DNA from: a virus
IMG/VR virus record: IMGVR_UViG_3300027881_000042
Location: 1-36,519 of that record
Strand: one strand, 5' to 3'
DNA: 36,519 nucleotides
Position numbers and translations under genes: made by a program. Below, piece by piece: positions 5,557-34,950 of the stretch; position 1 is the first letter of the stretch, and every line of letters begins with the position of its first letter. The notes under the pieces are model-generated. The model ran no database searches. It was not told the origin of the DNA and worked only from the letters and a program-made list of their open reading frames with translations.

Positions 5557-6789
5557 CTAGAACCCTTCCGATGCAAGTGCTCTCTTCGCAGCCGTGCCGG
5601 GGGCTACCCCATCGTCATACCAATCCCGGTACGGTTGATCCGCAAGGTCCATATAGCTCAGACCCGCGATCTGCCCCACAGCCTGATCGACTTTGCGCAG
5701 CCAATCCTCGAAGGACATCCGGGCGAACTCCTGCTGCACACTCTCCCACACGAGCCGAATGTTATCGCCGTCCATCTTCGTCGGATCGGGTTTGATCGTC
5801 CCGCGAATGTCAGGGTCCTTGTTGATGATCTCGGCCATGTCCCGAGCAGCCGCAGAGTCACGCGCCCACATCCCTCTGTCGAACCAGAAGTCGAAGGTGT
5901 CGTAACCGTGATCCTTCAGAAGAAGCTCGATCACTTTTTCGAGTCCTTCGTGCTTCACGCTCTCTGCGAACTCACCCGTCTGAAGGATGCCGGTGTCGGG
6001 TAGCACGAGACTCAGTTCGTAGCTGAAGAACTTGCGCCTGCGAGAGTTCTCCCCATCGAGCGCGACCATGAACGCGCCATCCTCGGTGATCTCTGAGATC
6101 GTGCCGAGCGTGCTGCGGTCATCGTCGGTGTCTTCGATCACGGCAACACGGTCGCCTATCGACATCCCGCGCCAGCCGAATAGACCGACTTCATCGATGC
6201 CGGGGTCCCTCTTCGGGAGCATCCTGTCATCGGGCACTGCCGACTGAGAAGGAAGGATGCCGCCCCGCTCGGTATCGACAGGCGGGGGAGTTTCCTCTTG
6301 CTCGTGCCTCAGCATCTCGTTCGTGAGCGTGTGCTTGTTCACGACATCGAAGGTGCCGTCATCGAACTCGATCTCGACTTCTTCTTTCGGGTTGATCGGG
6401 TTGTACGCTCCGGGCACTTCGGGGATGCCCCGGCCCGAAGTCGGAATCGTACCGGGTTGCACGACCGTTCCGGTCTTGCCTCGATTAAGACCACCTTCCG
6501 GTCTGATCTTCACACGGTCACCGGGGAGAGGCCAGAACGTCTCATCCTTCAAGGAGACTTCCACGACCTCTTCGGCGCTCTCGCCTTCAAGGACTTTGGA
6601 GATCAACTGCTCCATGCCCTCTTCCGTCTCTTGGAACGGAGTCAGTTCGCCACCGCACGATGAGCACATCTTGGGATAGCGACCCCTGTAGACAGGAACG
6701 TGAAGGCCGCATTCCTGACACACGAGCTTCGTTCGGCCTCTTCCCATCGCGCTTGCCATACCCCGCGTGATCGAAACTTTCTTAGGCAT
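5557..6789 (-). CDS. Modular cargo-like protein: zinc ribbon, helical motif, two SH3-like barrels, two KHE sites
   Basis: A 410-residue multidomain protein. Residues 24-45 form a zinc ribbon (Cys24, Cys27, Cys42, Cys45). Residues 58-80 are the recurring helical motif (M-E-Q-L-I-S-K-V-L-E-G-E-S-A-E-E-V-V). SH3-like barrels lie at about 88-155 (L-P-G-D-R-V-K-I) and 208-265 (I-G-D-R-V-A-V-I). Each barrel is followed by a putative protease site: L-R-H-E at 160-163 before Q, and V-K-H-E at 278-281 before G. The C-terminal 80 residues include S-F-E-D-W-L-R-K-V-D-Q-A-V and P-Y-R-D-W-Y-D-D-G-V-A-P-G-T-A-A, a pattern I recall from a small phage domain of unknown function. There is no canonical N-terminal leader. 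I infer a capsid-internal polyprotein. Confidence 0.85.
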   Translation of the reverse strand: MPKKVSITRGMASAMGRGRTKLVCQECGLHVPVYRGRYPKMCSSCGGELTPFQETEEGMEQLISKVLEGESAEEVVEVSLKDETFWPLPGDRVKIRPEGGLNRGKTGTVVQPGTIPTSGRGIPEVPGAYNPINPKEEVEIEFDDGTFDVVNKHTLTNEMLRHEQEETPPPVDTERGGILPSQSAVPDDRMLPKRDPGIDEVGLFGWRGMSIGDRVAVIEDTDDDRSTLGTISEITEDGAFMVALDGENSRRRKFFSYELSLVLPDTGILQTGEFAESVKHEGLEKVIELLLKDHGYDTFDFWFDRGMWARDSAAARDMAEIINKDPDIRGTIKPDPTKMDGDNIRLVWESVQQEFARMSFEDWLRKVDQAVGQIAGLSYMDLADQPYRDWYDDGVAPGTAAKRALASEGF

Positions 6790-8651: not shown

Positions 8652-8655
8652 CGTG

Positions 8656-21092: not shown

Positions 21093-22373
21093 CTATCTCC
21101 TACTCTGCTCGACGGAGCGAACACCAGCATCGAACGTGCTGAGGTTCGGTCCAGCCGCCAGCTTGATCCTGTTGAACGTCATCACCCAAGCCCCGGTTTC
21201 CCGGTTTACCTGCAACTGCACACCGGCCAGCGAAGACCCATCGTGGGGCTGGTGGAATAGTTGCGGGCCGAATGATAGTGAACCGGGACTCGGGATGAAA
21301 CCGTAGCGACCGACGATCATCGACGCATCGATCTGCTCGTGCTTCATGCTCTCACCGAGGAACTGTCGCAGGTCCTTCTCTAGCTCCTTCGCTCCGGTGC
21401 CCCGTGCAACTGGATCGGGTGCGTCCTTCCGATCAACCGGGAAGTCGTAGATCACCCACGAGCCGTTGTTCTTGACCTCGACGCCTGCGACCACCTTCGT
21501 CGGAGTGCGCTTGATCCAAAGAGGTACGCTGTACTGGCCGGAGACGGTATCGAAGCCACGCGCTCTCAGCACGCGCTCGATGTCCGGGTCGATGGCCTGC
21601 TCGTGCTTCGCGGCTTCAAGACCGAGGGCACGCATCGCAGCACTCGGGTTCGGGTGCTCTGCTATCGTCTCGAACATATCGAGGACATCCTGAACCTCTT
21701 GGGGATGCAGACCGCCATCGTCAAGAATCTCAGCAGCCTCTTCCATCGTGAACTCATCTTCCTTGAACGCATCCCATGCGGTCGCAAGGAGTCGAGCACC
21801 GAACTTCGCCTTCGCAGTACCGAGGTCAGTGACCCGCTGCTGCTCGTGTTTCGCGGACTCGGTGAAGTCTGAGAGACGCACGTTCGCCACGGTCGTCACG
21901 CCGCCCGACTGACCAGCCCGGTTCCTGATAGAGACGGGATCGCCAGCCTGCGCATTCGTCTTGAGCCAGCGCAATGCCTCATCCGCTTTGCCGATGAACT
22001 CCATCTCGCCGCCGAAGAAGACGTTCCATGCGCCCGGATCGAACGCATCTGGAATGACTTCCCATCCGCCTGACGGACTGCTGCCGAGTGCGGGCATGAA
22101 CCCAAACTGCTCTGCCCTCAACGCGGAGACAGGGACCTCAGCCACGCCGAAGATCGCGGTGCCGCTCTCGGAGATGTCGGCCATGTTGCCCCGAACAGCC
22201 ACGACTATCGCGCCCTTCGAGTTGATCGTCTTCACGAGCTTCAGGTACGGCGGTGCGCCAGCGCCCCTCGCCTTCAGTTCGGGGTCGCCCATGTTGACCT
22301 TGACGCGCATCCCCGGCTGAAGCGTGACGCTCTCGCGGTACGCCCTCTGTTGCATCCAACCGATGTTGCTCAT
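21093..22373 (-). CDS. Four-module polyprotein with three KHEQ sites
   Basis: A 426-residue protein and the clearest polyprotein of the set. It starts M-S-N-I-G-W-M-Q-Q-R-A-Y-R-E, a second leader type shared with the gene at 22705-23016. An SH3-like barrel (19-86) and a 'GF...W' module (87-140) follow. K-H-E-Q occurs at 175-178 (T-E-S-A-K-H-E), 256-259 (L-E-A-A-K-H-E) and 344-347 (G-E-S-M-K-H-E). The pieces between sites are 81, 88 and 80 residues. Piece two is helical and includes M-E-E-A-A-E-I-L-D-D-G; pieces three and four are further alpha-beta modules (R-A-R-G-F, G-S-W-V-I; V-G-R-Y-G-F, G-A-W-V-M). The start overlaps the upstream stop (TGATG). Confidence 0.88.
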   Translation of the reverse strand: MSNIGWMQQRAYRESVTLQPGMRVKVNMGDPELKARGAGAPPYLKLVKTINSKGAIVVAVRGNMADISESGTAIFGVAEVPVSALRAEQFGFMPALGSSPSGGWEVIPDAFDPGAWNVFFGGEMEFIGKADEALRWLKTNAQAGDPVSIRNRAGQSGGVTTVANVRLSDFTESAKHEQQRVTDLGTAKAKFGARLLATAWDAFKEDEFTMEEAAEILDDGGLHPQEVQDVLDMFETIAEHPNPSAAMRALGLEAAKHEQAIDPDIERVLRARGFDTVSGQYSVPLWIKRTPTKVVAGVEVKNNGSWVIYDFPVDRKDAPDPVARGTGAKELEKDLRQFLGESMKHEQIDASMIVGRYGFIPSPGSLSFGPQLFHQPHDGSSLAGVQLQVNRETGAWVMTFNRIKLAAGPNLSTFDAGVRSVEQSRR

Positions 22374-23053: not shown

Positions 23054-23563
23054 CTACGGGAACGCAGGGAACGTACAGACCCAATTGTTGCTGTTGCCCC
23101 GCCGCCTCTCACAGAACTGCTCGAAGATCGCAAGGGTGTCTGCTGGCTCGAAGATCGTATCGACCACGATGACGGTATCGACCACGATGAGCGTGTCGAT
23201 GACCGTCAAAGTGTCAACGATTGTGTCCCACACAAACAGCGTATCCACGAGGGTTACGGTGTCTGTGACGATCAGAGTGTCTACCACGATGACCGTATCC
23301 GTGACCAGCACGGTGTCCGTCACGAAGACGGTATCGACGCGGCTCGAATCAACGAAGATGGTGTCGGTCTGAGTGACTGTATCGACCCGAAGGATCGTGT
23401 CGAAGATGGTGACCTCTATGAAGGTCGTGTCACCTTTGACCTCGACTTCGGTGAGAGTGCTCCGGTCTACCTCACACGCTGCGAGCAGTAATGCAGCGGG
23501 CAGTGCGAGGATCGACACCAGCAGCAGCCTTTCGACTGCGTTCTTCACGCGGGCTAGATTCAC
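23054..23563 (-). CDS. Lipoprotein with Asp-Thr hexad repeats
   Basis: A 169-residue protein with a lipoprotein signal: basic start, hydrophobic segment (12-29) and lipobox L-A-A-C with Cys30. Residues 55-138 are a tandem repeat of about six residues, (V/I)-x-D-T-(V/I/L)-x, e.g. V-D-T-V-F-V-T-D-T-V-L-V, predicted to be an extended beta stack or solenoid. The C-terminus has two Cys (151 and 163) in a basic, aromatic segment. The lipid anchor points to a Gram-negative envelope. Possible roles are outer-membrane spanin, superinfection exclusion, or host-derived surface protein; none is proven. It lies between leader proteins. Confidence 0.85.
   Translation of the reverse strand: MNLARVKNAVERLLLVSILALPAALLLAACEVDRSTLTEVEVKGDTTFIEVTIFDTILRVDTVTQTDTIFVDSSRVDTVFVTDTVLVTDTVIVVDTLIVTDTVTLVDTLFVWDTIVDTLTVIDTLIVVDTVIVVDTIFEPADTLAIFEQFCERRRGNSNNWVCTFPAFP
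23150..23401 (-). repeat. Tandem degenerate 18-base repeats encoding the hexads
   Basis: The DNA coding for residues 55-138 of the lipoprotein is built of short units such as GTATCGACCACGATGACC and variants, roughly 18 bases each, with substitutions mostly at third positions. The unit number could change by slippage. The repeats are contiguous without spacers and the frame is kept throughout. Confidence 0.8.
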
Positions 23564-23564
23564 G

Positions 23565-24146
23565 TTACCCTACCAATCCGTCTATCGCTTGAAGGAGTTG
23601 ATCGAAGTAGACATCGTTGACTTCGCCTATGACCTTCCACGCGCCACCCGAGGCGTTCCCGGCGATGACATCGTAGAGGTCCCTGCCATTGAGCAGGATG
23701 ATGATCTTCCCGCCGCGTCCCATACCCGGCTTCGTTCCCCGGACCATGAACATGACGCCGCCGAGATGATTCCCCGGAATGCCGATCAGCGCGTGCCCCG
23801 CAGGGAGTCCCACGAAATCTTTAGCTCCCCACGAGGGAAGAGCCATCGGGTCCATCGCCTTGATCTGTTGCAGGATCGTATTGGCGACATCCTGCTCGTG
23901 CTTCATGGCCTCTACGAAGTGAGCGTCATCGATCCCCGAGCCCAAGAGCGCATGGAGCACATCGACGGAAACTGCCCGGTCAACGGCAATCGTAATCCCA
24001 TCGGGGTCGTCGGACACCACGCTGAATCGAGGCGTCAGCCCGGCGCTCACCATCGCATCTTCGACATCCCCCGATCCACAACCGGGGCAGCGAATCTTGA
24101 ACTTCTGCTCTTGGCGCAGAGCCCACTCCATGTACGCTTTCATCAA
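23565..24146 (-). CDS. Capsid-targeted polyprotein with two modules (leader RQEQ, internal KHEQ)
   Basis: A 193-residue protein. It begins M-M-K-A-Y-M-E-W-A-L-R-Q-E-Q, close to the T4 internal-protein leader; the cut is predicted after residue 13. Residues 20-80 start with C-P-G-C-G-S-G and form an alpha-beta unit (I-T-I-A-V-D-R-A-V-S-V-D-V-L-H-A-L-L-G-S-G). A-M-K-H-E-Q at 80-85 is the second site. Residues 85-193 form a second alpha-beta unit with K-I-I-I-L-L-N-G-R-D and G-A-W-K-V-I-G-E. Mature pieces would be about 71 and 109 residues. It overlaps the upstream membrane gene by 4 bases. Confidence 0.88.
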   Translation of the reverse strand: MMKAYMEWALRQEQKFKIRCPGCGSGDVEDAMVSAGLTPRFSVVSDDPDGITIAVDRAVSVDVLHALLGSGIDDAHFVEAMKHEQDVANTILQQIKAMDPMALPSWGAKDFVGLPAGHALIGIPGNHLGGVMFMVRGTKPGMGRGGKIIILLNGRDLYDVIAGNASGGAWKVIGEVNDVYFDQLLQAIDGLVG

Positions 24147-24337
24147 TCGCTCAACCTCTCTACGAAGCCGCCTACCGACTCAAGCCACTCCTTCGCTTCG
24201 GACGGAGTGGTGGGCAACAGGTCTGCCCACATGAGCAGGCCGATGATAATGATGATGAGAATCCACCACTTCATTCGCTCGAAGAAGTTCATCCAAAGCG
24301 CGAGGCGGTCCTGCTTCTGTGGCTGCTCTTCGGTCAC
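24143..24337 (-). CDS. Small single-span membrane protein
   Basis: A 64-residue protein with a charged N-terminus, a strongly hydrophobic segment at about 24-40 (W-W-I-L-I-I-I-I-I-G-L-L-M-W) and an amphipathic C-terminal helix. It might be a small holin or a membrane regulator. It is coupled by 4-base overlaps to leader proteins on both sides, so it is co-translated with putative cargo. Confidence 0.75.
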   Translation of the reverse strand: MTEEQPQKQDRLALWMNFFERMKWWILIIIIIGLLMWADLLPTTPSEAKEWLESVGGFVERLSD

Positions 24338-25098
24338 AGGATTCCCGCGTCTTCCAATTCGCGAGTGATGTTACCGACAGCGGCCCCGCCGCCAAGTTGC
24401 TGAAACAGTTTGTCTGTGAAGTCATCGAGCATCATTCCGCCCGACCAGAACGAGGAGATTAGGTCCACGATGAGATTCATGTCCATCTCACCGATCCTAT
24501 ATGTCTCCTTGATCCTTTTCAGGGCGGCCCGCTCGATGGCAGAGAAATCGGTTCCCTCGAAATCCTCGTGCTTCTTCGACTCACGCCGTAGGAGTTCGGC
24601 GTCACGCATCGAAGAGAAGTGCTGCTCGCCATCGTCACCGATGACCATGATCTCATCGCCGTCAACGTGCTCGACCTCGCCCTCGAACGGATTGAAGATG
24701 CCCATCTTGCCGATGTCGATCTGCACGATGTCACCGACCTTGATCCGCTGCTCGCGCTTCTGGCTCTCACCGACCGGGAGTCTCCCCACTACAGAGGCAT
24801 CCACAGGAACGATGAGCGTCTTCGTTGACATCGCGAACGTCAGGAGCCCCATTCTGGTCGCAAGGAATGACCCGGCATCTTCCGCGTTCAGGACAGCACT
24901 TGGCCCGGCCAAAACGACCCGTGGTGCCTCTATGCCACCGACTGTGGGCACGCCCTGTTCGACCTCAACGATCTTGTAGCGGATTTCCCTGATCGCAGCA
25001 AGGAACTCATCCACGTTCGAGGACGTGACCTTCTCTAACCCCTGTTCGAGAACCGGACGCGGCGTCTTGCTCGCCCATTCCTGCCATACTTTTCTCAT
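24334..25098 (-). CDS. Capsid-targeted polyprotein with SH3-like barrel and KKHE site
   Basis: 254 residues from the ATG at 25098, which overlaps the upstream stop by ATGA; a longer open frame to 25188 has no leader at its start and overlaps the upstream gene. The leader is M-R-K-V-W-Q-E-W-A-S-K-T-P-R-P-V-L-E-Q, cut expected after residue 18. Further candidate sites are Q-K-R-E at 113-116 before Q and S-K-K-H-E at 174-178 before D. The piece 19-116 is alpha-beta; 117-178 is an SH3-like barrel (I-K-V-G-D-I-V-Q-I); 179-254 is helical, with a variant helical motif and a terminal G-G-G-A-A-V-G-N. Confidence 0.87.
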   Translation of the reverse strand: MRKVWQEWASKTPRPVLEQGLEKVTSSNVDEFLAAIREIRYKIVEVEQGVPTVGGIEAPRVVLAGPSAVLNAEDAGSFLATRMGLLTFAMSTKTLIVPVDASVVGRLPVGESQKREQRIKVGDIVQIDIGKMGIFNPFEGEVEHVDGDEIMVIGDDGEQHFSSMRDAELLRRESKKHEDFEGTDFSAIERAALKRIKETYRIGEMDMNLIVDLISSFWSGGMMLDDFTDKLFQQLGGGAAVGNITRELEDAGIL

Positions 25099-25859
25099 CG
25101 TGCTTCCCACCACCAGAAGGTTGCGACACCCACCGCGACTCCGACGACTGTGATTATCACGCCGTCCGATACCTGCGGTGAGTACCAATCATGGCCGATC
25201 TCCGGTGGCTGGCACACGTCAGGCACCACGCTATCGACCTGCGCATCCATGTTGATCCACGCCGGGCCTTCGAGGTCTACGGCGGGTCGGTTGACCGCAA
25301 CGCAGCGAAGGTCCACGGCCACAGGCACGGGCCTGATGTTCATGTTCGAGAGGTTGAGGACAGGCACGACATCTACCACGCCGGGAATCTCGACCTCGAT
25401 CTCGCCATCGAATCGTTCATCCTTGACCGGAACCGTCACCTTACGCGGCGGCGGTATGACGATCACGGACTCAGGCAATACCTCGATCACGGTGTTGAGC
25501 TTCGTGATCGTATCGACCATCTGTTCCTCGACCTGAGCCAGCCGGGTCTGAGTCGATTCGAGCGTGTCCACCGTCTCGATCAAGACCTGCCTGACCGTGC
25601 GAACGGTGTCCTCTAGCTCTTCGATGATCTGCTGCTGTGAGGTCGCGAGCCCCCGAGCTTCGTCGCGCTCTTCGGTGAGGCTCGTAACCTGCTGGTTCGC
25701 ATCACCGAGATCGGTCGAGAGGTCGCCTGCTTCTTCCATGCTCATACAGAGTGCAACTGCCATAGCCGCGAGCACGATGGCGACGAACGCCCTCAGTCTG
25801 TAACGCTTGTACCTCGACTCTGCTGCTGTTGGAGACTTCTGATTTCCATCGGTATCCAT
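25095..25859 (-). CDS. Membrane protein with coiled coil and C-terminal span
   Basis: A 254-residue protein. A membrane segment lies at 22-40 after a basic cytoplasmic start, followed by a coiled coil (about 45-120, V-T-S-L-T-E-E-R-D-E-A-R-G-L-A), a proline-flanked beta region (P-P-P-R-K-V-T-V-P-V) with three Cys, and a second hydrophobic segment at the very end (about 233-250, followed by W-W-W-E-A-R). Two spans with a coiled coil between are unusual; spanin-like envelope fusion is one possibility, a structural role another. AAGGAG lies seven bases before the ATG. Confidence 0.8.
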   Translation of the reverse strand: MDTDGNQKSPTAAESRYKRYRLRAFVAIVLAAMAVALCMSMEEAGDLSTDLGDANQQVTSLTEERDEARGLATSQQQIIEELEDTVRTVRQVLIETVDTLESTQTRLAQVEEQMVDTITKLNTVIEVLPESVIVIPPPRKVTVPVKDERFDGEIEVEIPGVVDVVPVLNLSNMNIRPVPVAVDLRCVAVNRPAVDLEGPAWINMDAQVDSVVPDVCQPPEIGHDWYSPQVSDGVIITVVGVAVGVATFWWWEAR

Positions 25860-26214: not shown

Positions 26215-27681
26215 TTAGCTCTGGACGATCTTCCCCTTGATGTAGAAGTCGCCGTTGATGAGCTTCGTGCCATACCGCGAGGCGATACCCTTGCGAATCT
26301 TGAAGTCATCCAGACTCACAGTCGGGGTCGCGTAGAGCGGCACGTAGGGTGAATAGATGTAGCCCGTGTCGAAGAACGTCTGTCCTTTGTAGCCCATGAT
26401 GAAGTGGTCCTGAGAACCACCGGACAGAGTATCCATCGCCGGGTTGAGGTAGACTGCCCACCGGCTCCAATCACCGATCTTCCGAATGCCACGACCCTGA
26501 AACGATGCGTTGGGATCGGGAACGAAATCTTCCTGAGACTCGATGATGTCGGAGACGTTGTAGCCCACGACGATCCAGTTGGGATTCGCACGAGCGGTAC
26601 GCAGGTTCACGATGCTCGCACCGGAGATCAAGATGTCCTTGAAGGACGACTTATGATCGCGCCAACTGACGCCGGGCGCTGGGTTCTTGTTCCAGTCAGG
26701 AAGCTCGCTGGTGGGCGGATCGTAAGCCGCGTTCCAGAGAGCCGAGAGAATTTCGAGGTCGATCTCGAAGCGAAGCTCGGTGGTTACCTCAGCCGTCAGT
26801 TCGGTTTCGGCTTCCAGACCATGAATCGCCTTGAGGTCCTGCTGCGCCTCGAAGGACCAGCGTGTACGCAGCTTCCTCTCTTCAGCCGTGACCGGAGCTT
26901 TCGAGAGAACGATGTCCACCTGTGGAATGTTCTCCTGATTCTCAAGCTCGTAGTCGTAAGTCACGATCACGTCCACAGCAGCATCGACCGCTGCGGAGAA
27001 GCTGGTGTCGATTGCGCCCGTGGCGTAGTCGATGGTGTCAGCACCACCTGAACCAACGTCACCGGCAAGGTTGCCAGCACCATCGTCCTCGATGGTCTGC
27101 GTGCCAGCAGCCGAGGCGTGACTGATCGTCACCGTACCCGGCTTGATCGGCAACCACGAGAGGGTCGCTGTGATCTGCGCATTCGCGGCGATGATACCCG
27201 TACCGATCACTTCCTCATCGATGGTAGCCGATGAGTACGCCGCGTTCGGGTTCTCGAAGAGCTTCGTGCCCGCTGTTACCGTGCCCTTCGTGTTTGAGTA
27301 GATGTAGTCGAGGAAGAAGACCAACGATGCGGGTCCGCTCATCGGCTGTACCGACACGAGGTCGGTCGCGGCCAACTGAGGGAACAGCGCCCGAATGATC
27401 GGGAACGCGAACTTGTCGAAAGTCGCGATGTCGCCTGTCGTCAGGTCTTCCATGAATCCGCGAGCGTACCGCTTCTGGTTTTCCAGAAGCAGCGCGATGT
27501 CGCGGCGCATCTTGTTGTCTCGGATGCCTTCGAGAAGAGGCTCCCACCTGTAGGTGAGTTCTTCCTTGATCCGCTCCATCTCTTCCATGAAGACGTTGGA
27601 CTCGCTCACACCCGAACCGAGGGCGCGGGCCATTCCTCTTGCCTCACGGACGGGAGAGCGGCGTGCGCGTGTTCTACGCAT
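26215..27681 (-). CDS. Major capsid protein (T4 gp23-like, HK97 fold)
   Basis: A 488-residue protein. The N-terminal 55 residues are basic then helical, as in the removable N-arm of gp23. Residues 90-130 read F-A-F-P-I-I-R-A-L-F-P-Q-L, then V-Q-P-M-S-G-P (111-117), the hallmark of the gp23 family ('vqpM.gPt'). Further matches are W-S-F-E-A-Q-Q-D-L-K-A-I-H-G-L and, at the end, I-G-D-W-S-R-W-A-V-Y, then D-D-F-K-I-R-K-G-I-A-S-R-Y-G. The middle (about 195-260) is a Gly/Thr/Asp-rich insertion. The subunits form the capsid shell after cleavage by the protease from the adjacent gene. The cut site is not clear; V-R-E at 11-13 before A is one candidate. Confidence 0.95.
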   Translation of the reverse strand: MRRTRARRSPVREARGMARALGSGVSESNVFMEEMERIKEELTYRWEPLLEGIRDNKMRRDIALLLENQKRYARGFMEDLTTGDIATFDKFAFPIIRALFPQLAATDLVSVQPMSGPASLVFFLDYIYSNTKGTVTAGTKLFENPNAAYSSATIDEEVIGTGIIAANAQITATLSWLPIKPGTVTISHASAAGTQTIEDDGAGNLAGDVGSGGADTIDYATGAIDTSFSAAVDAAVDVIVTYDYELENQENIPQVDIVLSKAPVTAEERKLRTRWSFEAQQDLKAIHGLEAETELTAEVTTELRFEIDLEILSALWNAAYDPPTSELPDWNKNPAPGVSWRDHKSSFKDILISGASIVNLRTARANPNWIVVGYNVSDIIESQEDFVPDPNASFQGRGIRKIGDWSRWAVYLNPAMDTLSGGSQDHFIMGYKGQTFFDTGYIYSPYVPLYATPTVSLDDFKIRKGIASRYGTKLINGDFYIKGKIVQS

Positions 27682-27718: not shown

Positions 27719-28381
27719 TTACCCACGCTGCTCGAAATGCTCCACGAGCTTCCGGGTTCGGTCAACGATCTCGTTGCCAGACTCTTCCGAGCCTCTGTGC
27801 TCGACGCTCTCCATCACCGGCTGGGCGCGTGCCTTGCCCTTGATGGCTGCCAACACCTGTGCGTCACGCTGTTCCGTCTTCGGCTTGCCGCCGAACGTGA
27901 CGAGGGTACGATACAGGCTGTTAGCCTCGGAAAAGTTCTTGGCTTTCTTCAGTGCCTTCGCGGCTGCTTCCCGCTTCGGTGCGGGGAATCGCTGGATCAA
28001 ACTGGCGATGTGCTCACCGAGGTTGTTCTCATGCGACTCTGCGGCCTTCTTCAAAGAGGACTCTACGACCTTCGCGGCAGCATCTACGCGCTTGCGCTCG
28101 ATGGTCACCTGCCTGCGTGCCTCTTTGGCCTTATCGAGTGCCGCTTCAGCCAGCCGCTTCGCGGCATCGCTGTGCTTCGTCTCGCCACGGAGACGCGCCG
28201 TCATCCGCTCGATCATCTTCATCGCGGATTCGAGCTTCGCCACCATACCCGTACTTGACTCACGGGAGTAAGCGAGGTCGCGGCGCAGCTTGCCGTTCTC
28301 TTCTTCGAGTTCTCCCACCGTGGCGTTCAGAGTGCTCTCGATACGCTCGATGGCCGAACTTTCGGCTGCTGGACGCTCCAT
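27719..28381 (-). CDS. Nested scaffold protein (internal start)
   Basis: An in-frame ATG at 28381 (Met285 of the fusion) would give a 220-residue scaffold alone. It is mostly predicted coiled coil (R-I-E-S-T-L-N-A-T-V-G-E-L-E-E-E-N-G-K-L and onward) and ends in a mixed segment with E-H-F-E-Q. The arrangement parallels lambda C/Nu3, where an internal start makes the scaffold in excess over the protease fusion. The ribosome binding site described next supports it. Whether it is used is inference. Confidence 0.7.
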   Translation of the reverse strand: MERPAAESSAIERIESTLNATVGELEEENGKLRRDLAYSRESSTGMVAKLESAMKMIERMTARLRGETKHSDAAKRLAEAALDKAKEARRQVTIERKRVDAAAKVVESSLKKAAESHENNLGEHIASLIQRFPAPKREAAAKALKKAKNFSEANSLYRTLVTFGGKPKTEQRDAQVLAAIKGKARAQPVMESVEHRGSEESGNEIVDRTRKLVEHFEQRG

Positions 28382-29233
28382 GTTGTGATCTCCTGCTACG
28401 TGTTGAAGTTCATCCTTCTTTTTGCTCTTCTTCTTCGCATCCTTGTCCTTATCCTTCTTCCCATCATAGGCACCTGCCTCGATGGTGCTCTGGACACGAG
28501 CCCGAAGAGACTTCAACGACTCCTGCACTCTATCGTCATCTATCTTGCACGGCGATGATTCGCAGACCGAATCAAGGATGGTCTGATACGCCTCTAACTC
28601 TCTACCTGTTACGGGTGTGTCTTCCTGCTCTTCGTAGCGGTCGAGTCTTTCCTGCACCTGCCTCGCGAAGCGGTCGTAGTGCTCCGTGAGGTTCGCCACC
28701 GGGAAGGCCGCATCGACGGACGGCTCAACCACCATATCGAACCCGCCGAGGTCGAAGTTCTCATCGAGAATTTCGGTCTGGCCTTCTTGATGACTGTCAC
28801 CCCATCCGCGACTCGACGTACCGAGTCTGATCCCTGCCCTGAAGAGTCGCTTGAGGGTATCGCCTGCTGCGGTGTCGAGGATTTCCGACTTGCACCAGAT
28901 GGGAGTACCGCCGCCTTCGAGCTTCTGATCGGACAGAATCTTCATCTCGGTGGTGACGTGGCTGATCTCCTGCGGCGGAACGATGCCGTCCGCAGGGTGC
29001 CCGAGCATACCGACTAGCTGCCGGTGCTTGAGCTTCGACGCGAAGTCATCACTGCCCATCAGGTTCTCGAACAGCTTGAGCGGGTAGACTCGCCCGTTGC
29101 TGTTCTCCATGTCCGCGACCTGATGCACGCCACTGAAGGTCGATACCTTTTTGCCTTCGACCTCTTCTTCGGTAAAGTGTTGAAGGTCGAAGTGGCGAAA
29201 CTCGCTATAGTATTTCTTCGTTGCTGTCGTCAT
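27719..29233 (-). CDS. Prohead protease fused to scaffold
   Basis: A 504-residue protein. Residues 1-215 match phage prohead proteases of the T4 gp21 type (MEROPS S80): N-S-N-G-R-V-Y-P, L-V-G-M-L-G-H-P with the likely catalytic His79, S-H-V-T-T-E-M, and the G-T-S-S-R-G-W-G loop with the likely Ser at 140/141. A lysine-rich linker (about 265-278) leads into a long coiled-coil scaffold (285-504). The C-terminus contains V-M-E-S-V-E-H, close to the E-S-x-K-H-E motif of the cargo proteins. In T4 the protease and scaffold are separate genes (21 and 22). This enzyme is the obvious candidate to cut the leaders and KHE sites of the surrounding genes. Confidence 0.92.
   Translation of the reverse strand: MTTATKKYYSEFRHFDLQHFTEEEVEGKKVSTFSGVHQVADMENSNGRVYPLKLFENLMGSDDFASKLKHRQLVGMLGHPADGIVPPQEISHVTTEMKILSDQKLEGGGTPIWCKSEILDTAAGDTLKRLFRAGIRLGTSSRGWGDSHQEGQTEILDENFDLGGFDMVVEPSVDAAFPVANLTEHYDRFARQVQERLDRYEEQEDTPVTGRELEAYQTILDSVCESSPCKIDDDRVQESLKSLRARVQSTIEAGAYDGKKDKDKDAKKKSKKKDELQHVAGDHNMERPAAESSAIERIESTLNATVGELEEENGKLRRDLAYSRESSTGMVAKLESAMKMIERMTARLRGETKHSDAAKRLAEAALDKAKEARRQVTIERKRVDAAAKVVESSLKKAAESHENNLGEHIASLIQRFPAPKREAAAKALKKAKNFSEANSLYRTLVTFGGKPKTEQRDAQVLAAIKGKARAQPVMESVEHRGSEESGNEIVDRTRKLVEHFEQRG
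28390..28396 (-). promoter_or_regulatory. Internal Shine-Dalgarno for the nested scaffold
   Basis: GCAGGAG on the minus strand lies eight bases before the in-frame ATG at 28381. This is one of the best-spaced ribosome binding sites in the window, although it lies inside a coding region, and it decides in favour of the nested start. Confidence 0.7.
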
Positions 29234-29235
29234 CG

Positions 29236-30039
29236 TTAGAACCTCGCGGTCATTCCGACCATGCGGAGCCCACCTGTGAAGCTGACCTCAGCCGGTCCCT
29301 CGAACTTCGCTTCGTCCGCTGTCGCCTTGTCCAACAGTCCACGCATCTCCAACGTGTCGATCATCGACTCGAACGGTGCCCTCATGTCGATGAAGCCCAT
29401 CTCGATCTCATCATCAAGGTCCTCTTCCGAGATGTACCAGACGGTCTTGCCGGTCGCATCCTCGATGTGGATGTTCGCTTGCCCGCGCTCTTCGTAACCG
29501 CTGATGCTGAACGGAAGCTCGAACGGTGGTCGTCCGATCTCGACGTGCTCGTGCTTCTTCCCTTCGAGGTTCGCCCGGTCCCATCCACGGAGCCACGCAT
29601 CGAGCAATTCTTTCGCGCCACCACCTACAGGTCGTCCGGGGCCGATGAGAGCCATCAACTGCTGATCGACTGCTGGGACTCTCTGCTTACCTGCGCGGAA
29701 CGCCGCATCGCCAAGCTCTTCAGCCTGCCCTTCCGGGGTGGACGAACGGAACCCACGTACCTGCTCTTGCCTCGCACCAGCACGATCACGCGAGGCGATC
29801 ATGCCCTTGCCCGCCTTCTCCGTGATGTCCATGAGCGCCAGCGACCACTCGCGGTCGGTGACGTGCGGCGGCTTGAACTCGGTGACAGACCAGAGAGGGA
29901 CCATGCCGATGCGGATCATCGCCTTCTCGCTGTCGTCCATCTTGTCCCACGCCTTCCACGCGGCAGGCAGGGCTTCCTCTACCGATTCGGCCACCGGCTT
30001 CGGCTTGCGGCGTGCCCACTCCAAGAAGCCTTTCTTCAT
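29236..30039 (-). CDS. Capsid-targeted internal protein with KKHE site
   Basis: A 267-residue protein that begins M-K-K-G-F-L-E-W-A-R-R-K-P-K-P-V-A-E-S; the cut may follow A-E at residue 18. The N-terminal domain is helical (W-K-A-W-D-K-M-D-D-S-E-K-A-M) and contains A-R-Q-E-Q. E-G-K-K-H-E before H lies near residue 167, followed by an alpha-beta module (L-P-F-S-I-S-G-Y, A-N-I-H-I-E-D-A-T-G-K-T-V-W-Y-I, then a helix M-I-D-T-L-E-M-R-G-L-L). It directly precedes the protease/scaffold gene, so cargo and protease may be made together. Confidence 0.87.
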   Translation of the reverse strand: MKKGFLEWARRKPKPVAESVEEALPAAWKAWDKMDDSEKAMIRIGMVPLWSVTEFKPPHVTDREWSLALMDITEKAGKGMIASRDRAGARQEQVRGFRSSTPEGQAEELGDAAFRAGKQRVPAVDQQLMALIGPGRPVGGGAKELLDAWLRGWDRANLEGKKHEHVEIGRPPFELPFSISGYEERGQANIHIEDATGKTVWYISEEDLDDEIEMGFIDMRAPFESMIDTLEMRGLLDKATADEAKFEGPAEVSFTGGLRMVGMTARF

Positions 30040-30722
30040 CGTCCTTGCTCCTTCGCGAAGAAGTCCTCGGCCTCGCGGCCAAGCTCACCTTTGAGCGCAT
30101 AGCCCGGCCTGTCCATGTTGTCCACCGCCATGTCGAGCAGCGCATCGGAGAGCCCGAGGTTCATGTCGAAGCTCCGGTGGCTGCGCTGATCCGCGATGAA
30201 GAAACCTTCGTTGACGTTGTGGATCGACCAATCCCCACTGTCCTCGATCCAGACCTCGATAGCTCGGCCCTGCTCTAGCGCCCAAACCTCTTGCGTCGAT
30301 GTGTCGCCTACCGAGGGATCGGCAGGATGAACTTCCTTGAGGACGAAGCCCGAGTCCTTGAGCGTCTTCTGCACATCGCGGGGCGTGATCTCTGCGGTCT
30401 GCTCGTGCCGCAGCTTCGACTCGAACTGCTTGAACGCACCGCCGAAGATAGGATCGTCGGGGCTCTTGAAAATTCCACCGCCGCCGAAGTTGGCATCGGA
30501 GAACTTGAGCGCCGAGATCGGATAGGTCTTCGCGTGATCTTGTCCTGTGTCCGAGGCGAGCGTAACGAACATGAAGCCCGGCTTCGGTGATACGCCGGTC
30601 CTGATCTTCGCGACTGAGCCCGGACCATCGGGGGTCATCACTCCCATGCCCGCGATGTCGAGGTCAACCGAGAAGCCGCCAAGCTCCTTCTTCAGAGCCC
30701 ACTCTACGAATGACTTTCTCAT
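30036..30722 (-). CDS. Capsid-targeted polyprotein with RHEQ site
   Basis: A 228-residue protein beginning M-R-K-S-F-V-E-W-A-L-K-K-E-L, cut expected after residue 13. Residues 14-100 form a beta-rich domain (M-G-V-M-T-P-D-G-P-G-S-V-A-K-I) akin to the SH3-like barrels. S-K-L-R-H-E at 102-107 before Q is the second site. The 108-228 piece is a clear 'GF...W-I' module: V-Q-K-T-L-K-D-S-G-F-V-L-K, A-I-E-V-W-I-E-D-S-G-D-W-S-I, and a C-terminal helix. The protein ends A-K-E-Q-G-R, perhaps one more cut close to the C-terminus. Overlaps the next gene by 4 bases. Confidence 0.88.
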   Translation of the reverse strand: MRKSFVEWALKKELGGFSVDLDIAGMGVMTPDGPGSVAKIRTGVSPKPGFMFVTLASDTGQDHAKTYPISALKFSDANFGGGGIFKSPDDPIFGGAFKQFESKLRHEQTAEITPRDVQKTLKDSGFVLKEVHPADPSVGDTSTQEVWALEQGRAIEVWIEDSGDWSIHNVNEGFFIADQRSHRSFDMNLGLSDALLDMAVDNMDRPGYALKGELGREAEDFFAKEQGR

Positions 30723-30727
30723 CGTGT

Positions 30728-31501
30728 CTACTCGAACGGTGGTAGGTTGGGAGTCGGAGCCCGCCTGAGTTCAGCGTTCGGCATGATCGACTTCACGATG
30801 CTGAACACATCGTCCTCATCTTCCTCACTGATCGGAGTGATCTCGTACTCACCCATGTTCGGGAACGAGGTCACATCGACATCGATGTACTCAGCCCGGA
30901 TCGCTTGGACGACTCGCCTCGCATCCGCCTCGGTTCCTTTGAAGGCCGATACCTTTCCGAAGACCTGCTCGTGCTTCTTCGACTCGGGGTAGACGCCCAT
31001 CGAGTCGAGCTTGTCCATGAGCGTGTCGCGCCCGATGCCTTCGCCCTGCCCACCGCTGATAATCGTCCAGCGAGCGCCTTGCTTCGTGACGTGGATGGTC
31101 ATCGTGGGACCCGTCGGGTGCCACGGCTGAGGACTGATGCTAAGGGTCGCGCCTTGACCATCGGATGAATCCAAACCGAAGCCAACCGCACGCAGGTAGT
31201 CCACTGCCATCTCGTAATCCCAAGTCTGCTCGTGCTTCATGCTCTCCGAGACAGGCACAAGGTCACGCGCCTTCATGTGGACCTCTTTGCCGTCCTTGTC
31301 GAAGCGAACGACCGTCGAATCGCCGCGCATACCGGGTCCGATGACCAACCCCTCTTGCCCATCATAGAAGGCGGTGTGCGATGAGAGGGCACGGTTCCGC
31401 ATCGGATCAACTCTGACGCGAGTGCCGGGCGGCAACTGGACTTGTTCAACCTTCGGTCGGGGCTTGCGGCGAGCCCACTCTAGGAATCCTTTTCTCATCA
31501 C
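30728..31501 (-). CDS. Capsid-targeted polyprotein with two KHEQ sites
   Basis: A 257-residue protein. The leader M-M-R-K-G-F-L-E-W-A-R-R-K-P-R-P-K-V-E-Q predicts a cut after 19. K-H-E-Q follows at 89-92 (S-E-S-M-K-H-E) and 176-179 (E-S-K-K-H-E). This gives pieces of 72, 87 and 79 residues: an SH3-like barrel (P-P-G-T-R-V-R-V-D), a 'GF...W' alpha-beta module (Y-L-R-A-V-G-F-G-L, G-A-R-W-T-I-I-S-G-G), and a third small alpha-beta unit (V-S-A-F-K-G-T-E-A-D-A-R-R-V-V-Q-A-I). Together with the gene at 21093-22373 it is the best example of regular spacing. It overlaps the upstream gene by 4 bases. Confidence 0.9.
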   Translation of the reverse strand: MMRKGFLEWARRKPRPKVEQVQLPPGTRVRVDPMRNRALSSHTAFYDGQEGLVIGPGMRGDSTVVRFDKDGKEVHMKARDLVPVSESMKHEQTWDYEMAVDYLRAVGFGLDSSDGQGATLSISPQPWHPTGPTMTIHVTKQGARWTIISGGQGEGIGRDTLMDKLDSMGVYPESKKHEQVFGKVSAFKGTEADARRVVQAIRAEYIDVDVTSFPNMGEYEITPISEEDEDDVFSIVKSIMPNAELRRAPTPNLPPFE

Positions 31502-31806
31502 GATGCTCTCTTCTGAAGCGTTGGTATGCCCGTGTGCCTGCTGGTTTCGTCGGGGAACACAAGCAGGCGAGCAAGTAACTCAATCGTCTGCGCCTCATCG
31601 AGCTTCGGGTCGCCTGACATCGTGCCCAACTGACCCGAACCGCGTAGCGCCTCTAGCTGTCTCTTAACGAGGTCCCAAAAGACCGGCTTGCTAACCTGAT
31701 CCTCAGCCAGCTTGATAACCGTGATCGTATCGGGTTGGTCTGTGAATCGGACCCACGGCATACCCTGCTCGTGGACCGACCATTCGAGCCACGCTTCCCT
31801 ACTCAC
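31498..31806 (-). CDS. Small capsid-targeted internal protein
   Basis: 102 residues from the GTG at 31806, which overlaps the upstream stop by 8 bases; a longer frame from 31980 is open but would lie within the upstream gene. It begins (fMet)-S-R-E-A-W-L-E-W-S-V-H-E-Q, a good leader with the cut predicted after V-H-E. The remainder is an alpha-beta domain (M-P-W-V-R-F-T-D, T-I-T-V-I-K-L-A-E-D, then helices including L-L-A-R-L-L-V-F). Predicted mature length is about 90 residues. Confidence 0.82.
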   Translation of the reverse strand: MSREAWLEWSVHEQGMPWVRFTDQPDTITVIKLAEDQVSKPVFWDLVKRQLEALRGSGQLGTMSGDPKLDEAQTIELLARLLVFPDETSRHTGIPTLQKRAS

Positions 31807-34330
31807 GACCCAATCGGAAGACGACTTCATCGCGAAGACCAAGCCTTGAGAGTTCACCATCGATCCACGCCATAGTCGCCCGCTCCCGTTCCGCAGCCTC
31901 AGCGGGCTCACACTCGCCCGTCTCCTTGTTTCGCCGCTGGCCCTTCGGGCATCTCTTACCGGGCTCCGGCTCAGTCCCACCCGGTTGTGGCGGCTCTTCC
32001 GGTTCAGGCTCGGGTTCTAGTTCGGGAGCGGGCTCTTCTGGTTCGGGCTCTTCTTCGGGCTCTTCCTCGGGCTCGCAATGGCCTGTGTCCTTGTTCCACT
32101 TCATTCCCTCGGGGCACTCGGGCGCAGGGCGCTCGGGCTCCTGCTCCGGCTCTTCCTCGGGCTCGGGTTCTGCGATGGCCTTGATCGGCACGCAGCCGCC
32201 CGTCTCGGGATCGAGCTTCTGTCCCTCGGGGCAGGTCTTCTCTACGTCCTTCTCGGGCTCGGGTGCATCGGGGTCGCGCTCGGGCTCGGCGTCCGTCTTC
32301 GCCTGCTCTGGACCCTCGGGCTCATCCTTCTTACGCTTCGACACGCACTGGCCTGTCTCTTTGTCGAGCGCCTGACCGTCCGGGCACTTGATCGGTTCGC
32401 ACGCGCCTGTCGTGGCGTTGCGCTCTGTGCCCTTCGGACAGCCCTTGAACTTCTTGATGACAGCTTTGCCGACTTTCTTTGCAGCCTTCGCTACGCCCTT
32501 GCCGACTTTCTTCGCAGCTTTCGCAGCAGCACCGGGAGCCGCTGTCGCCTTCTCGACGCCCTTCTCTATCCCGGTGCCCTTGAACGGAGTCGCGAGCAGA
32601 CCGACGACCTCATCTATAGAGGCTTCCCCATCGAGCAGCATCTCGATGGCGTTGTCGATCTCGCTATAGTCTTGCTCCATGCTCTCCCCAAACGAGAATG
32701 CGTACCTGTCCTTCGCGTCCTCGATAGCAGCCTCAATGTCCTCGAAGCGGGCATCAGGAAACCGCTGCTTCAACAAGGGGAAGAATCCACCGCCCTTACC
32801 GAGCTTGAGTTCGCTGAGGACTACTTGCACCATAGCCTCGTGATCTGGATGCTGTTGCGCTTCGTGTATCACGTTCTCCGCTCGCCAATATTTTGCGGTC
32901 GTAGAGTAGCCGGTCGCAGACGAGCCCGATCTCCACGAAACTTTTCCACCCTGTCCACCCCGTAGTTCGCCTGCTCTGACCATCCTCTGTAGCACGGTCG
33001 AGACTTCACGCGGCGTCATCTCGTGGCCCTTGAGCTTCAGGACACTCGCCGCTTCCTTCGCTGTGAAGTCGGCTCTACGCTGTGCGAGATCGAGCAGGAT
33101 TTCCCTCACAGCAGAATCGTCCTGCTCGTGCTTCACCGATTCCATCATCTCTGGATGAAACTTCTCAAGCCACGCCATCCATCCTTCCGACTCGGCCTCG
33201 GCTATGCAGTCCGCTCTTCCGTGCCAGTAGAAATCGTTGGGGCCACGAAACTCTGCGTAGCTACCAGCGCCGCCGCCCGACCTGTAACCATGAGCAGCTT
33301 TCCGCTCGGCGGGAGTCGTCACCAGCTTGACCTTCTCCATCACGTCCCTGCGAAGAGCGCGACAGAAAGAATGAGCGTCCTCGTGTATCAGGCTCTCTCC
33401 GATCATCGAGGTAGCGACCTCGATGGCTCGCTGACGGTCAGCCAGCCCTGTCTTCGACCAAGACCCGTCGATGCTCTCTGCCGACCAGAAGCCCGAACCA
33501 CCGACCACATTGAAGATGCGAGCCCTTAGTTCGTCATCCTTGAAGACTCCCCACTCTGCTCGCGCCGGGGAACTGTACGATCCGATCTCGTAGCCTTCGG
33601 CTCCGGTCAGCTTACGAACCTCGATGGCCTCGTGTACCAAGCCCTCACGCTTCACCACGTCCGGTATCTTCACCGTCATCGCCTGAACCTGACCGAGCGG
33701 CATTCCGAGTTGACGACCGACCCACGCGACCAGCGCCGTGAGGAAGCTGAGGCTGAATTGTTCGCGCCCACCTGCCGCACGAACGAACGCGATGATCTCT
33801 TGCAGCAGACCCTCGACTCCGTAGCGCAGCGCGTCCGACTGTTGGAGCGCCTGCAACAGAGGCTCACCGATAGACGCGATGTCGAACTCGTGATAGGTCT
33901 GCTCGGTACGAAGTGCGATTGGCTTCACCGCTCCTGCGTCAAAAGCGGCAACCTCGTAAGGCGTGCCACCCGGCGCACGCGCTCTCTCTACAATGATCGC
34001 ATCGTGCCCCATGCTTTGAACGAATTGTGCGACCGCTCTCGATGCTCCTATGCGGTCTGGACCCCTCACCGTGTTCCCTGTCGTCGGCCACGCCTCTTCC
34101 TCAAGCCACTTGTACGCTTCATCGGTCGTGGCGAACCGCAGCGGGTTTCTGAACGCAGCCTCGACTTCGATGATCGCCGTGCCAAGCGCCCGTGCGCGAG
34201 AGAGGTTGCCAGTGAGGTAGATCGCCCAGCCGAAATCTCCGGGGTCACTGCTCCGCGCTACATTGAGATCGAAGCCGCCTCGAAGAATGCTCTCTGCTGC
34301 TTGGTCGCTCGTTGCGTGAAATAGTCTCAC
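31799..34330 (-). CDS. Giant ADP-ribosyltransferase-type polyvalent protein
   Basis: An 843-residue protein starting with GTG at 34330. Residues 1-140 look like an ADP-ribosyltransferase of the H-Y-E class: L-F-H-A-T-S (His5), G-W-A-I-Y-L-T (34-40) and a late T-P-Y-E-V-A-A-F-D (113-121 region to 131), as in the ART of 'polyvalent proteins' of phages. Candidate cut sites are R-T-E (141-143), V-H-E (232-234), I-H-E (315-317), V-K-H-E-Q (399-403) and I-H-E (488-490). Residues 404-485 look like a winged helix. The helical motif is at 558-580. A Lys/Ala-rich helix (594-630) precedes five Cys mini-repeats (631-808) separated by Glu/Pro linkers. T4 Alt is a packaged ART, a functional parallel. No leader of its own; see the upstream gene. 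Confidence 0.85.
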   Translation of the reverse strand: MRLFHATSDQAAESILRGGFDLNVARSSDPGDFGWAIYLTGNLSRARALGTAIIEVEAAFRNPLRFATTDEAYKWLEEEAWPTTGNTVRGPDRIGASRAVAQFVQSMGHDAIIVERARAPGGTPYEVAAFDAGAVKPIALRTEQTYHEFDIASIGEPLLQALQQSDALRYGVEGLLQEIIAFVRAAGGREQFSLSFLTALVAWVGRQLGMPLGQVQAMTVKIPDVVKREGLVHEAIEVRKLTGAEGYEIGSYSSPARAEWGVFKDDELRARIFNVVGGSGFWSAESIDGSWSKTGLADRQRAIEVATSMIGESLIHEDAHSFCRALRRDVMEKVKLVTTPAERKAAHGYRSGGGAGSYAEFRGPNDFYWHGRADCIAEAESEGWMAWLEKFHPEMMESVKHEQDDSAVREILLDLAQRRADFTAKEAASVLKLKGHEMTPREVSTVLQRMVRAGELRGGQGGKVSWRSGSSATGYSTTAKYWRAENVIHEAQQHPDHEAMVQVVLSELKLGKGGGFFPLLKQRFPDARFEDIEAAIEDAKDRYAFSFGESMEQDYSEIDNAIEMLLDGEASIDEVVGLLATPFKGTGIEKGVEKATAAPGAAAKAAKKVGKGVAKAAKKVGKAVIKKFKGCPKGTERNATTGACEPIKCPDGQALDKETGQCVSKRKKDEPEGPEQAKTDAEPERDPDAPEPEKDVEKTCPEGQKLDPETGGCVPIKAIAEPEPEEEPEQEPERPAPECPEGMKWNKDTGHCEPEEEPEEEPEPEEPAPELEPEPEPEEPPQPGGTEPEPGKRCPKGQRRNKETGECEPAEAAERERATMAWIDGELSRLGLRDEVVFRLGRE

Positions 34331-34336
34331 CGCTGG

Positions 34337-34612
34337 TCATCGTAGTTTGATCGGACCTGATGGGAACGGTGGTTGGTCACGCCTGAGCCACCTGTTCATC
34401 GCACCTACGTCACCCGAGTCCGTTCCGTGCTCCTTCATAAAGGCGATGAGCTTCTGCTGATCCACGTCCGACAGGAACTCGAAATCGCTCATGTTGGTGA
34501 CACCCACTTCGTTGCCGATCTGCTCTTGGTCGTAGTTGTTGAGCGAGTTCCACGCATTGCTCGTGGTGAGCTTCCATGTCAGCCCTCGGGCGAACTCAAG
34601 CCAGACTTTCAT
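34337..34612 (-). CDS. Small protein with leader, in frame with the ART gene
   Basis: A 91-residue protein beginning M-K-V-W-L-E-F-A-R-G-L-T-W, a leader with Phe instead of Trp, like the E-F of T4 internal proteins, but without the usual Glu cut site. The body is helical (A-W-N-S-L-N-N-Y-D-Q-E-Q-I-G and D-V-D-Q-Q-K-L-I-A-F-M-K-E-H-G). It ends with UGA followed by C; the downstream ART frame is the same frame, two codons on. It overlaps the upstream gene by 4 bases. It could be an independent small cargo or the detachable leader part of a read-through product. Confidence 0.78.
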   Translation of the reverse strand: MKVWLEFARGLTWKLTTSNAWNSLNNYDQEQIGNEVGVTNMSDFEFLSDVDQQKLIAFMKEHGTDSGDVGAMNRWLRRDQPPFPSGPIKLR

Positions 34613-34950
34613 TTCCTCACGAGGTTGAGACGAACGACCCGAGCCTCGACGTGCGACTCACCTAGAAACTTCAACACCGACAGCCGGTGGTTTCCGTCGA
34701 GGACCGTTATCAATCCTTCGTAGTCCTGTAGCTGTGGGAGAGCACTGAACCTTCCTGTGCTCTCCCATTCCCGCTTGCACTTCTCTAACCTCTTCTCACT
34801 GATGTACGTCTGCGTCGAGTACACCAAATCGAGGTCCACAATCTCGACCTCGCCTTCCGGCCACTCTTCATCAGGCTTGGGCCAGCCTGTGAACTCACAG
34901 CGCCGAAAGTATGTGAGTGGGAGCAGGTTCTTTACTACGGAACCGGCCAC
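34609..34950 (-). CDS. ParB/sulfiredoxin-like fold protein
   Basis: A 113-residue protein with the core of the ParB/Srx-like superfamily: V-E-I-V-D-L-D-L-V-Y-S-T-Q near the start (the 'i.i..l.~t' strand) and I-T-V-L-D-G-N-H-R-L-S-V-L-K-F-L-G (81-97), the 'v.DGnHRl.al' motif (D-G-N-H-R at 85-89). Members act as nucleases, CTP-dependent clamps or protein-modification enzymes, so the reaction cannot be named. It starts at a GTG at 34950, 16 bases before the upstream gene ends. Such domains are frequent in phage polyvalent proteins and next to ART domains. Confidence 0.82.
   Translation of the reverse strand: MAGSVVKNLLPLTYFRRCEFTGWPKPDEEWPEGEVEIVDLDLVYSTQTYISEKRLEKCKREWESTGRFSALPQLQDYEGLITVLDGNHRLSVLKFLGESHVEARVVRLNLVRK

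What the first reader, a model, noticed from the sequence alone, without database searches (positions are those of the whole stretch)
31799..34330. Giant ART-headed polyvalent protein with several possible cut sites
The 843-residue protein has an ADP-ribosyltransferase-like head, a winged-helix-like domain, the helical motif, a Lys/Ala-rich helix and five Cys mini-repeats, with H-E sites between parts. 'Polyvalent proteins' of phages and conjugative elements join such effector domains, and T4 injects its ART Alt with the DNA. Together this suggests a host-takeover protein delivered from the capsid and cut into parts.
Basis: partly seen in the sequence, partly recalled or inferred. Interest (0 to 1): 0.8.

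Follow-up and report, generated by a model that had tools for sequence, protein, structure and literature searches.

The report
Phage effector polyprotein led by ADP-ribosyltransferase
A T4-like phage seems to encode a string of small effector domains, led by an ADP-ribosyltransferase and joined by a repeated peptide that its own head protease probably cuts, so several proteins could be carried in the capsid and injected into the host together; cutting and injection are inferred, not shown.

Summary
Window 31799-34330, minus strand, is a real 843-aa ORF in a T4-type morphogenesis fragment (Gp23 major capsid protein, S77 prohead protease). Its head is an ADP-ribosyltransferase (ART) by predicted fold (closest solved chains: cyanophage pre-ejectosome protein, tankyrases, diphtheria toxin), with His5, Tyr38 and Glu126 invariant among MuF- and virion-linked phage ARTs. 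It is an H-Y-E enzyme, not a T4 Alt homologue.

The "H-E sites" are the important part. Across the window they form a peptide, E-[S/G/A]-x-[K/V/I]-H-E|[Q/A/D] (E...HE 21 seen, 1.4 expected; ES[MAVKL][KI]HE 9 versus 0.002). Five lie in this protein, 83-88 residues apart, between ART, four-helix, two unassigned and winged-helix units. Ten neighbouring genes begin with "[FYWM]-x-E-[FW]-[AS]", matching the phage T4 capsid-targeting peptide.

Best reading: a capsid cargo polyprotein diced at Glu by the prohead protease during head maturation and ejected with the DNA. Cutting, packaging and enzyme activity are inferred. This protein lacks an N-terminal targeting peptide, the motif departs from T4's [L/I]-x-E, and no close relative was found. 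New variant of a known kind.

The parts
31799..34330 (-). P0001, 843-aa ART-headed polyprotein (GTG start, TAG stop)
33887..34330 (-). Unit 1 (res 1-148): ADP-ribosyltransferase domain, predicted active residues His5, Tyr38, Glu126; ends ..RTEQTYHE|F
   Evidence: AF2 pLDDT 78, pTM 0.74; fold matches to cyanophage A4 pre-ejectosome chain Z 9.1, tankyrases, diphtheria toxin and anti-CRISPR 6kyf, MuF-ART of phage Schubert E 9e-9; invariant residues
33629..33886 (-). Unit 2 (res 149-234): four-helix domain; ends ..KREGLVHE|A
   Evidence: AF2 pLDDT about 66-85 over res 149-229, single sequence
33380..33628 (-). Unit 3 (res 235-317), fold not determined; ends ..IGESLIHE|D
   Evidence: site motif; low pLDDT
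33125..33379 (-). Unit 4 (res 318-402), fold not determined; contains WMAWLEKF at 384; ends ..MMESVKHE|Q
32861..33124 (-). Unit 5 (res 403-490): winged-helix domain; ends ..RAENVIHE|A
   Evidence: VIA-align Z 8.3 to PadR-family Rv3488, Fur/Zur and other regulators below
32675..32860 (-). Unit 6 (res 491-552), ending in a possible degenerate site GESME|Q
   Evidence: sequence; inference
32591..32659 (-). Helical motif (res 558-580) shared with eight other window proteins
   Evidence: HMM, iE 3e-7
32441..32563 (-). Lys/Ala-rich basic helix (res 590-630)
31904..32440 (-). Five Cys mini-repeats CPxGxxxxxxTGxC (res 631, 649, 700, 739, 794) with Glu/Pro linkers
   Evidence: CBM_14 match E 5e-6 covers one mini-repeat only
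31498..31806 (-). Next gene, GTG start overlapping the P0001 stop; N-terminus MSREAWLEWSVHE|Q (targeting peptide plus site)
34337..34612 (-). Upstream gene with targeting peptide MKVWLEFA; same frame as P0001, separated by one TGA
34609..34950 (-). ParB-like protein (LDGNHRLSVLKF)
   Evidence: sequence; weak phrog ParB-like match E 0.05
30728..31501 (-). Targeting-peptide gene with two ESxKHE|Q sites 87 residues apart
30036..30722 (-). Targeting-peptide gene with one site
29236..30039 (-). Targeting-peptide gene; unit 93-164 lies between RQE|Q and KHE|H and contains the phrog_19203 match (res 105-158)
27719..29233 (-). Prohead protease S77/gp21 fused to a scaffold-like part; C-terminus holds VMESVEHRG
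   Evidence: Pfam E 4e-11, phrog_207 E 1e-27
26215..27681 (-). Major capsid protein, Gp23 family
   Evidence: Pfam E 1.6e-57
24334..25188 (-). Targeting-peptide gene (MRKVWQEWA) with site ESKKHE|D
23565..24146 (-). Targeting-peptide gene (MKAYMEWALRQE|Q) with site EAMKHE|Q
21093..22373 (-). Polyprotein-like gene with three KHE|Q sites (177, 258, 346)
5557..6789 (-). Polyprotein-like gene; unit 282-410 follows ESVKHE|G and holds a phrog_519 match and mycobacteriophage relatives

Best explanation
P0001 is a cargo polyprotein of a T4-like virion. It is made late, enters the prohead core with about twenty other cargo proteins, and the nearby S77 prohead protease cuts it after Glu at E-x-x-x-H-E sites into an ART, a four-helix unit, two unassigned units, a winged-helix unit and a basic/Cys-rich tail. 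The pieces are ejected with the DNA; the ART modifies host proteins (as T4 Alt does) and the winged helix binds host or phage DNA. Shown here by computation: the ART and winged-helix folds, the shared site motif, its position between units, targeting peptides on neighbours, and the protease. Inferred: packaging of this protein, cutting, ejection, ART activity and targets.
For: ART fold and residues; its relatives sit in MuF head proteins and an internal virion protein. Site motif: KHE 15 seen vs 0.9, KHEQ 8 vs 0.02; E...HE 21 vs 1.4; ES[MAVKL][KI]HE 9 vs 0.002. Sites lie outside recognised domains: after the ART and after the four-helix unit, winged helix starting near Q403 after KHE|Q, and phrog_19203 and phrog_519 matches inside single inter-site units. 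Targeting motif: 10 minus-strand N-termini, none elsewhere, none on the plus strand; a like motif is 7.6-fold enriched at N-termini of ORFs in 107 T4-like capsid loci and seen in T4 IPI, MKTFKEF; in T4, IPIII residues 4 and 7 target and 8 and 10 direct cutting (PMC9026906). Several targeting peptides end in the same kind of site, e.g. LEWALKHE|A, LEWSVHE|Q, LEWALRQE|Q. Another T4-like contig has targeting peptides, an ART-like head and a ParB-like protein side by side near its capsid gene (L036). Prohead proteases of T4, phiKZ, SPN3US and 201phi2-1 all cut after Glu with few other rules.
Against: P0001 has no N-terminal targeting peptide. The motif's P3 (Lys/Val/Ile) differs from T4 [L/I]-x-E, and the major capsid protein has no HE site; its likely site is FME|D (from alignment only). 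The motif was not found as a repeated feature in related phages, so its conservation could not be tested across genomes. No proteomics. The ART model rests on four sequences, and only two of five models passed pLDDT 60.
Confidence: 0.6

Rival explanations
1. P0001 is an ordinary uncut polyvalent protein: packaged and ejected whole, the ExxxHE peptide being only a flexible linker spread by recombination between cargo genes.
For: Known polyvalent proteins can be packaged unprocessed, e.g. N4 virion RNA polymerase (PMC5512222); domain shuffling is evident from the shared helical and Cys motifs.
Against: A linker need not keep a fixed E...KHEQ register; the same ending closes targeting peptides, which in T4 are cut off.
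Confidence: 0.2
2. The ExxxHE peptide is a docking motif for the scaffold core (an internal targeting signal) rather than a cut site.
For: It resembles the targeting peptide with W replaced by S (FLGESMKHEQ versus YLEWALKHEA); it occurs in proteins lacking an N-terminal targeting peptide, P0001 included.
Against: In T4 targeting sits mainly in residues 4 and 7 and processing in residues 8 and 10; the internal copies keep the end and lose the aromatics.
Confidence: 0.15
3. P0001 is not a virion protein but an intracellular ART made during infection.
For: No N-terminal targeting peptide on P0001; T4 ModA and ModB are ARTs deployed after infection (PMC9503650).
Against: Its stop overlaps the start of a targeting-peptide gene and it lies 2.6 kb from the protease in a same-strand structural cluster; it shares motifs with the cargo-like proteins.
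Confidence: 0.1

Closest known systems
MuF-ART fusion of Microbacterium phage Schubert and relatives (ART-PolyVal, PF18760)
   Same: Same ART fold, H/Y/E residues and C-terminal strand with the Glu; head-associated
   Different: Schubert's ART is fused to MuF and passes PF18760; P0001 has no MuF, is followed by a chain of units and does not pass PF18760
Phage T4 Alt and internal proteins IPI-III with gp21
   Same: Protease-linked head cargo, targeting peptide of the form Y/F-x-E-F, cutting after Glu, ART delivered with DNA
   Different: Alt is an R-S-E ART; T4 internal proteins are single units with terminal propeptides; site rule L/I-x-E
Polyvalent proteins (Iyer et al. 2017, PMC5512222)
   Same: Large phage protein joining an ART with unrelated domains
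   Different: That work proposes release by embedded peptidase domains; here the candidate cutter is the separate prohead protease and the sites are a repeated peptide
SPN3US / phiKZ head proteins cut by gp245 / gp175
   Same: Many head proteins cut after Glu, with several sites per propeptide
   Different: There propeptides are removed; here at least some folded units, not propeptides, lie between sites

Membership tests
ADP-ribosyltransferase superfamily, H-Y-E class | ART fold | tested here: met
   AF2 model and fold matches
ADP-ribosyltransferase superfamily, H-Y-E class | His in strand 1, Tyr in strand 2, Glu/Asp in strand 5 | tested here: met
   H5, Y38, E126 invariant in four sequences and on strands 2-7, 37-40, 125-129; spatial closeness not measured
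ADP-ribosyltransferase superfamily, H-Y-E class | NAD-dependent transferase activity | not testable with these tools
   needs biochemistry
ART-PolyVal (PF18760) | Passes the curated profile score | tested here: not met
   no match at E 10, while relatives L095 and L096 pass
T4 Alt (Alt/VIP2 clade) | R-S-E active site | tested here: not met
   triad is H-Y-E; clade rule from PMC5512222
T4-type internal proteins | N-terminal capsid-targeting peptide | tested here: not met
   absent from P0001; present on ten neighbours
T4-type internal proteins | Cut by the prohead protease after Glu | not testable with these tools
   sites predicted only
Substrates of T4 gp21 | L/I-x-E site | tested here: not met
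   sites mostly read [K/V/Y]-H-E, two I-H-E; other prohead proteases have other rules
Polyvalent proteins | Several domains of unrelated function in one phage protein | tested here: met
   ART, winged helix and further units
Polyvalent proteins | Two or more different enzymatic domains | tested here: inconclusive
   only the ART recognised; units 3, 4 and 6 have no assigned fold

The most novel reading that the evidence does not exclude
The phage runs a polyprotein strategy for injected effectors: about ten or more genes encode strings of small effector units joined by a dedicated E-S-x-K-H-E|Q peptide, an eroded capsid-targeting peptide left by fusion of cargo genes, and the prohead protease dices them inside the head so that one targeting event loads several effectors.
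Probability: 0.45. Interest if true: 0.75.

Novelty: new variant of a known kind. Interest (0 to 1): 0.62.

Why it matters
Internal head proteins are among the least understood injected weapons of phages. A motif that marks both where cargo is targeted and where it is cut would let cargo effectors be read directly from metagenomic phage sequence (here about 20 candidates in 36 kb), and would show a way to load many effectors through one targeting signal. A like targeting motif, [FYW]-x-E-[FW], was also enriched at N-termini in 107 other T4-like loci, so part of this is testable broadly.

Tried and rejected
Whole-protein searches found no relative in phages or IMG/VR, PHROGs, PDB sequences, and nothing credible in NCBIfam. 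Pfam's CBM_14 hit covers 20 residues of one Cys mini-repeat and was not taken as chitin binding. Capsid-gene searches found 80 viral and 27 genome loci, best 40% identity, none with the KHE motif enriched; L029 has five E...HE, not followed up. A DNA scan for the targeting peptide gave two unrelated contigs, L092 and L093. Homology between inter-site units: none found beyond targeting peptides and the Cys motif, so the units are not internal repeats. Tripeptide enrichment in other T4-like loci reflected ordinary repeats or chance. The helical motif was not found in relatives; its absence from targeting-peptide genes is not significant (P 0.12). L036's ART-like head scores only a weak KptA match, so it is called ART-like only. 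A tblastn of the phrog_19203 unit found no phage match. Readthrough of the TGA before P0001 was considered; nothing here tests it.

Full report
Setting. The window is an IMG/VR virus fragment of 36,519 bases, its recognised genes on the minus strand, with Gp23 capsid protein (26215-27681), S77/gp21 prohead protease fused to a scaffold-like part (27719-29233) and tail sheath (814-2697). No tRNA was found. The nearest capsid protein found in the collections is 40% identical.

The protein. The finding lies on the minus strand: 843 residues from GTG 34330 to TAG 31799. Its codon-position GC pattern is similar to that of the structural genes. Its stop overlaps the GTG of the next gene, which begins MSREAWLEWSVHEQ.

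The head is an ART. Sequence search alone gave only a weak PARP match (E 0.11, residues 2-46). A tblastn of the first 143 residues gave five weak matches, among them the internal virion protein of Synechococcus phage P60 (E 0.1) and the MuF-like head protein of Microbacterium phage Schubert (E 4). These and a further MuF-like fusion (L096) align over the domain with H5, Y38 and E126 invariant, and two of them pass Pfam ART-PolyVal. A four-sequence AlphaFold2 model (pLDDT 78, pTM 0.74) matches the cyanophage A4 pre-ejectosome chain (Z 9.1), tankyrases (Z 8.8) and diphtheria toxin (Z 8.6), an anti-CRISPR (6kyf) and the Schubert MuF-ART (E 9e-9; Schubert was in the input alignment, so that match is not independent). 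The first-stage refutation test is passed. The enzyme is H-Y-E and so not of the Alt clade, which is R-S-E (PMC5512222).

The sites. KHE occurs 15 times against 0.9 in shuffles, KHEQ 8 against 0.02. Around the 24 best sites, Glu stands at P6 in 19, Ser at P5 in 10, Lys at P3 in 15 and Gln at P1' in 11; ES[MAVKL][KI]HE occurs 9 times against 0.002 (that pattern was written after reading the sites). All five P0001 sites have the P6 Glu, and they are spaced 86, 83, 85 and 88 (chosen after seeing the data). Recognised domains do not straddle a site: the ART ends before E148, a four-helix unit fills about 149-229, a winged helix begins near Q403; in other genes phrog_19203 and phrog_519 matches lie inside single units.

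Targeting peptides. Ten genes begin with [FYWM]-[LVMQ]-E-[WF]-[AS]; the pattern occurs nowhere else on either strand. T4 IPI begins MKTFKEF, and in T4 IPIII residues 4 and 7 direct targeting while 8 and 10 direct processing (PMC9026906). In 107 related loci [FYW]-x-E-[FW] plus a small or hydrophobic residue is 7.6 times more frequent at N-termini than elsewhere, including MKTFSEWL on a protein continuing VRLYHQTSD, an ART-like head, beside a ParB-like protein (L036). In the window several targeting peptides end in the same kind of site (LEWALKHE|A, LEWSVHE|Q, LEWALRQE|Q), which ties the motif to head processing.

Mechanism. The simplest account is cargo polyproteins: gene fusions placed several cargo units behind one targeting element, the internal copies kept the cut site and lost the aromatic targeting residues, and the prohead protease frees the units in the head. 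Prohead proteases of T4, SPN3US, phiKZ and 201phi2-1 share only the P1 Glu rule, so a new P3-P2 preference is plausible but unproved. The exact scissile bond is also open: each motif holds two Glu five residues apart (E-S-x-K-H-E), and cutting after the first, before Ser/Gly/Ala, is not excluded. How P0001 itself is loaded is open: candidates are the WMAWLEKF stretch at 384 and the helical motif at 558; it has no N-terminal targeting peptide. It lies in frame with the upstream targeting-peptide gene, behind one TGA; readthrough is possible but untested.

Limits. No relative of the whole protein was found, so conservation of site positions could not be tested. Units 3, 4 and 6 have no assigned fold. 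The searches of the paper library showed no phage effector polyprotein cut by a prohead protease, but the library is partial. Nothing here shows packaging, cutting or enzymatic activity.

Noticed in passing
window 34337-34339: One TGA separates the targeting-peptide gene 34337-34612 from P0001 in the same frame; no clear Shine-Dalgarno precedes the P0001 GTG. Readthrough, reinitiation or a sequence error are all possible.
   Followed up: partly
L036:5270-7244: Another T4-like contig carries three genes with targeting-like N-termini (MKTFYEWL, MKTFVKWL, MKTFSEWL) next to its capsid gene, one ParB-like and one with an ART-like head.
   Followed up: partly
window 8370-8681, 12152-12520, 18276-19058 and six others: A 23-residue helical motif, consensus about [IV]DxAIxMIxxGxxPxEVVxxLL, occurs once in each of nine proteins, none of which has the N-terminal targeting peptide; perhaps a second targeting element.
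   Followed up: partly
window 5557-6789, 10173-12155, 18276-19058, 30728-31501: Many of the cargo-like proteins seem to contain small SH3/KOW-like beta domains (..GDRVxV..GxVxxxxxxxVxxxxG..); by eye only.
   Followed up: no
window 23054-23563: Predicted lipoprotein (LLLAACEVD) with a long run of [VI]DT[VIL] repeats.
   Followed up: no
window 2711-3103 and 4125-4547: Two tail-region proteins begin with helix-hairpin-helix-like sequence (IRGIGIATAKRI, IKGIGPATAEEI).
   Followed up: no
window 20398-21057: MT-A70 DNA methyltransferase (Pfam E 3e-20) within the structural cluster.
   Followed up: no
window 27719-29233: The protease's own C-terminus holds VMESVEHRG, close to the MMESVKHEQ site of P0001; possible self-processing site.
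   Followed up: no
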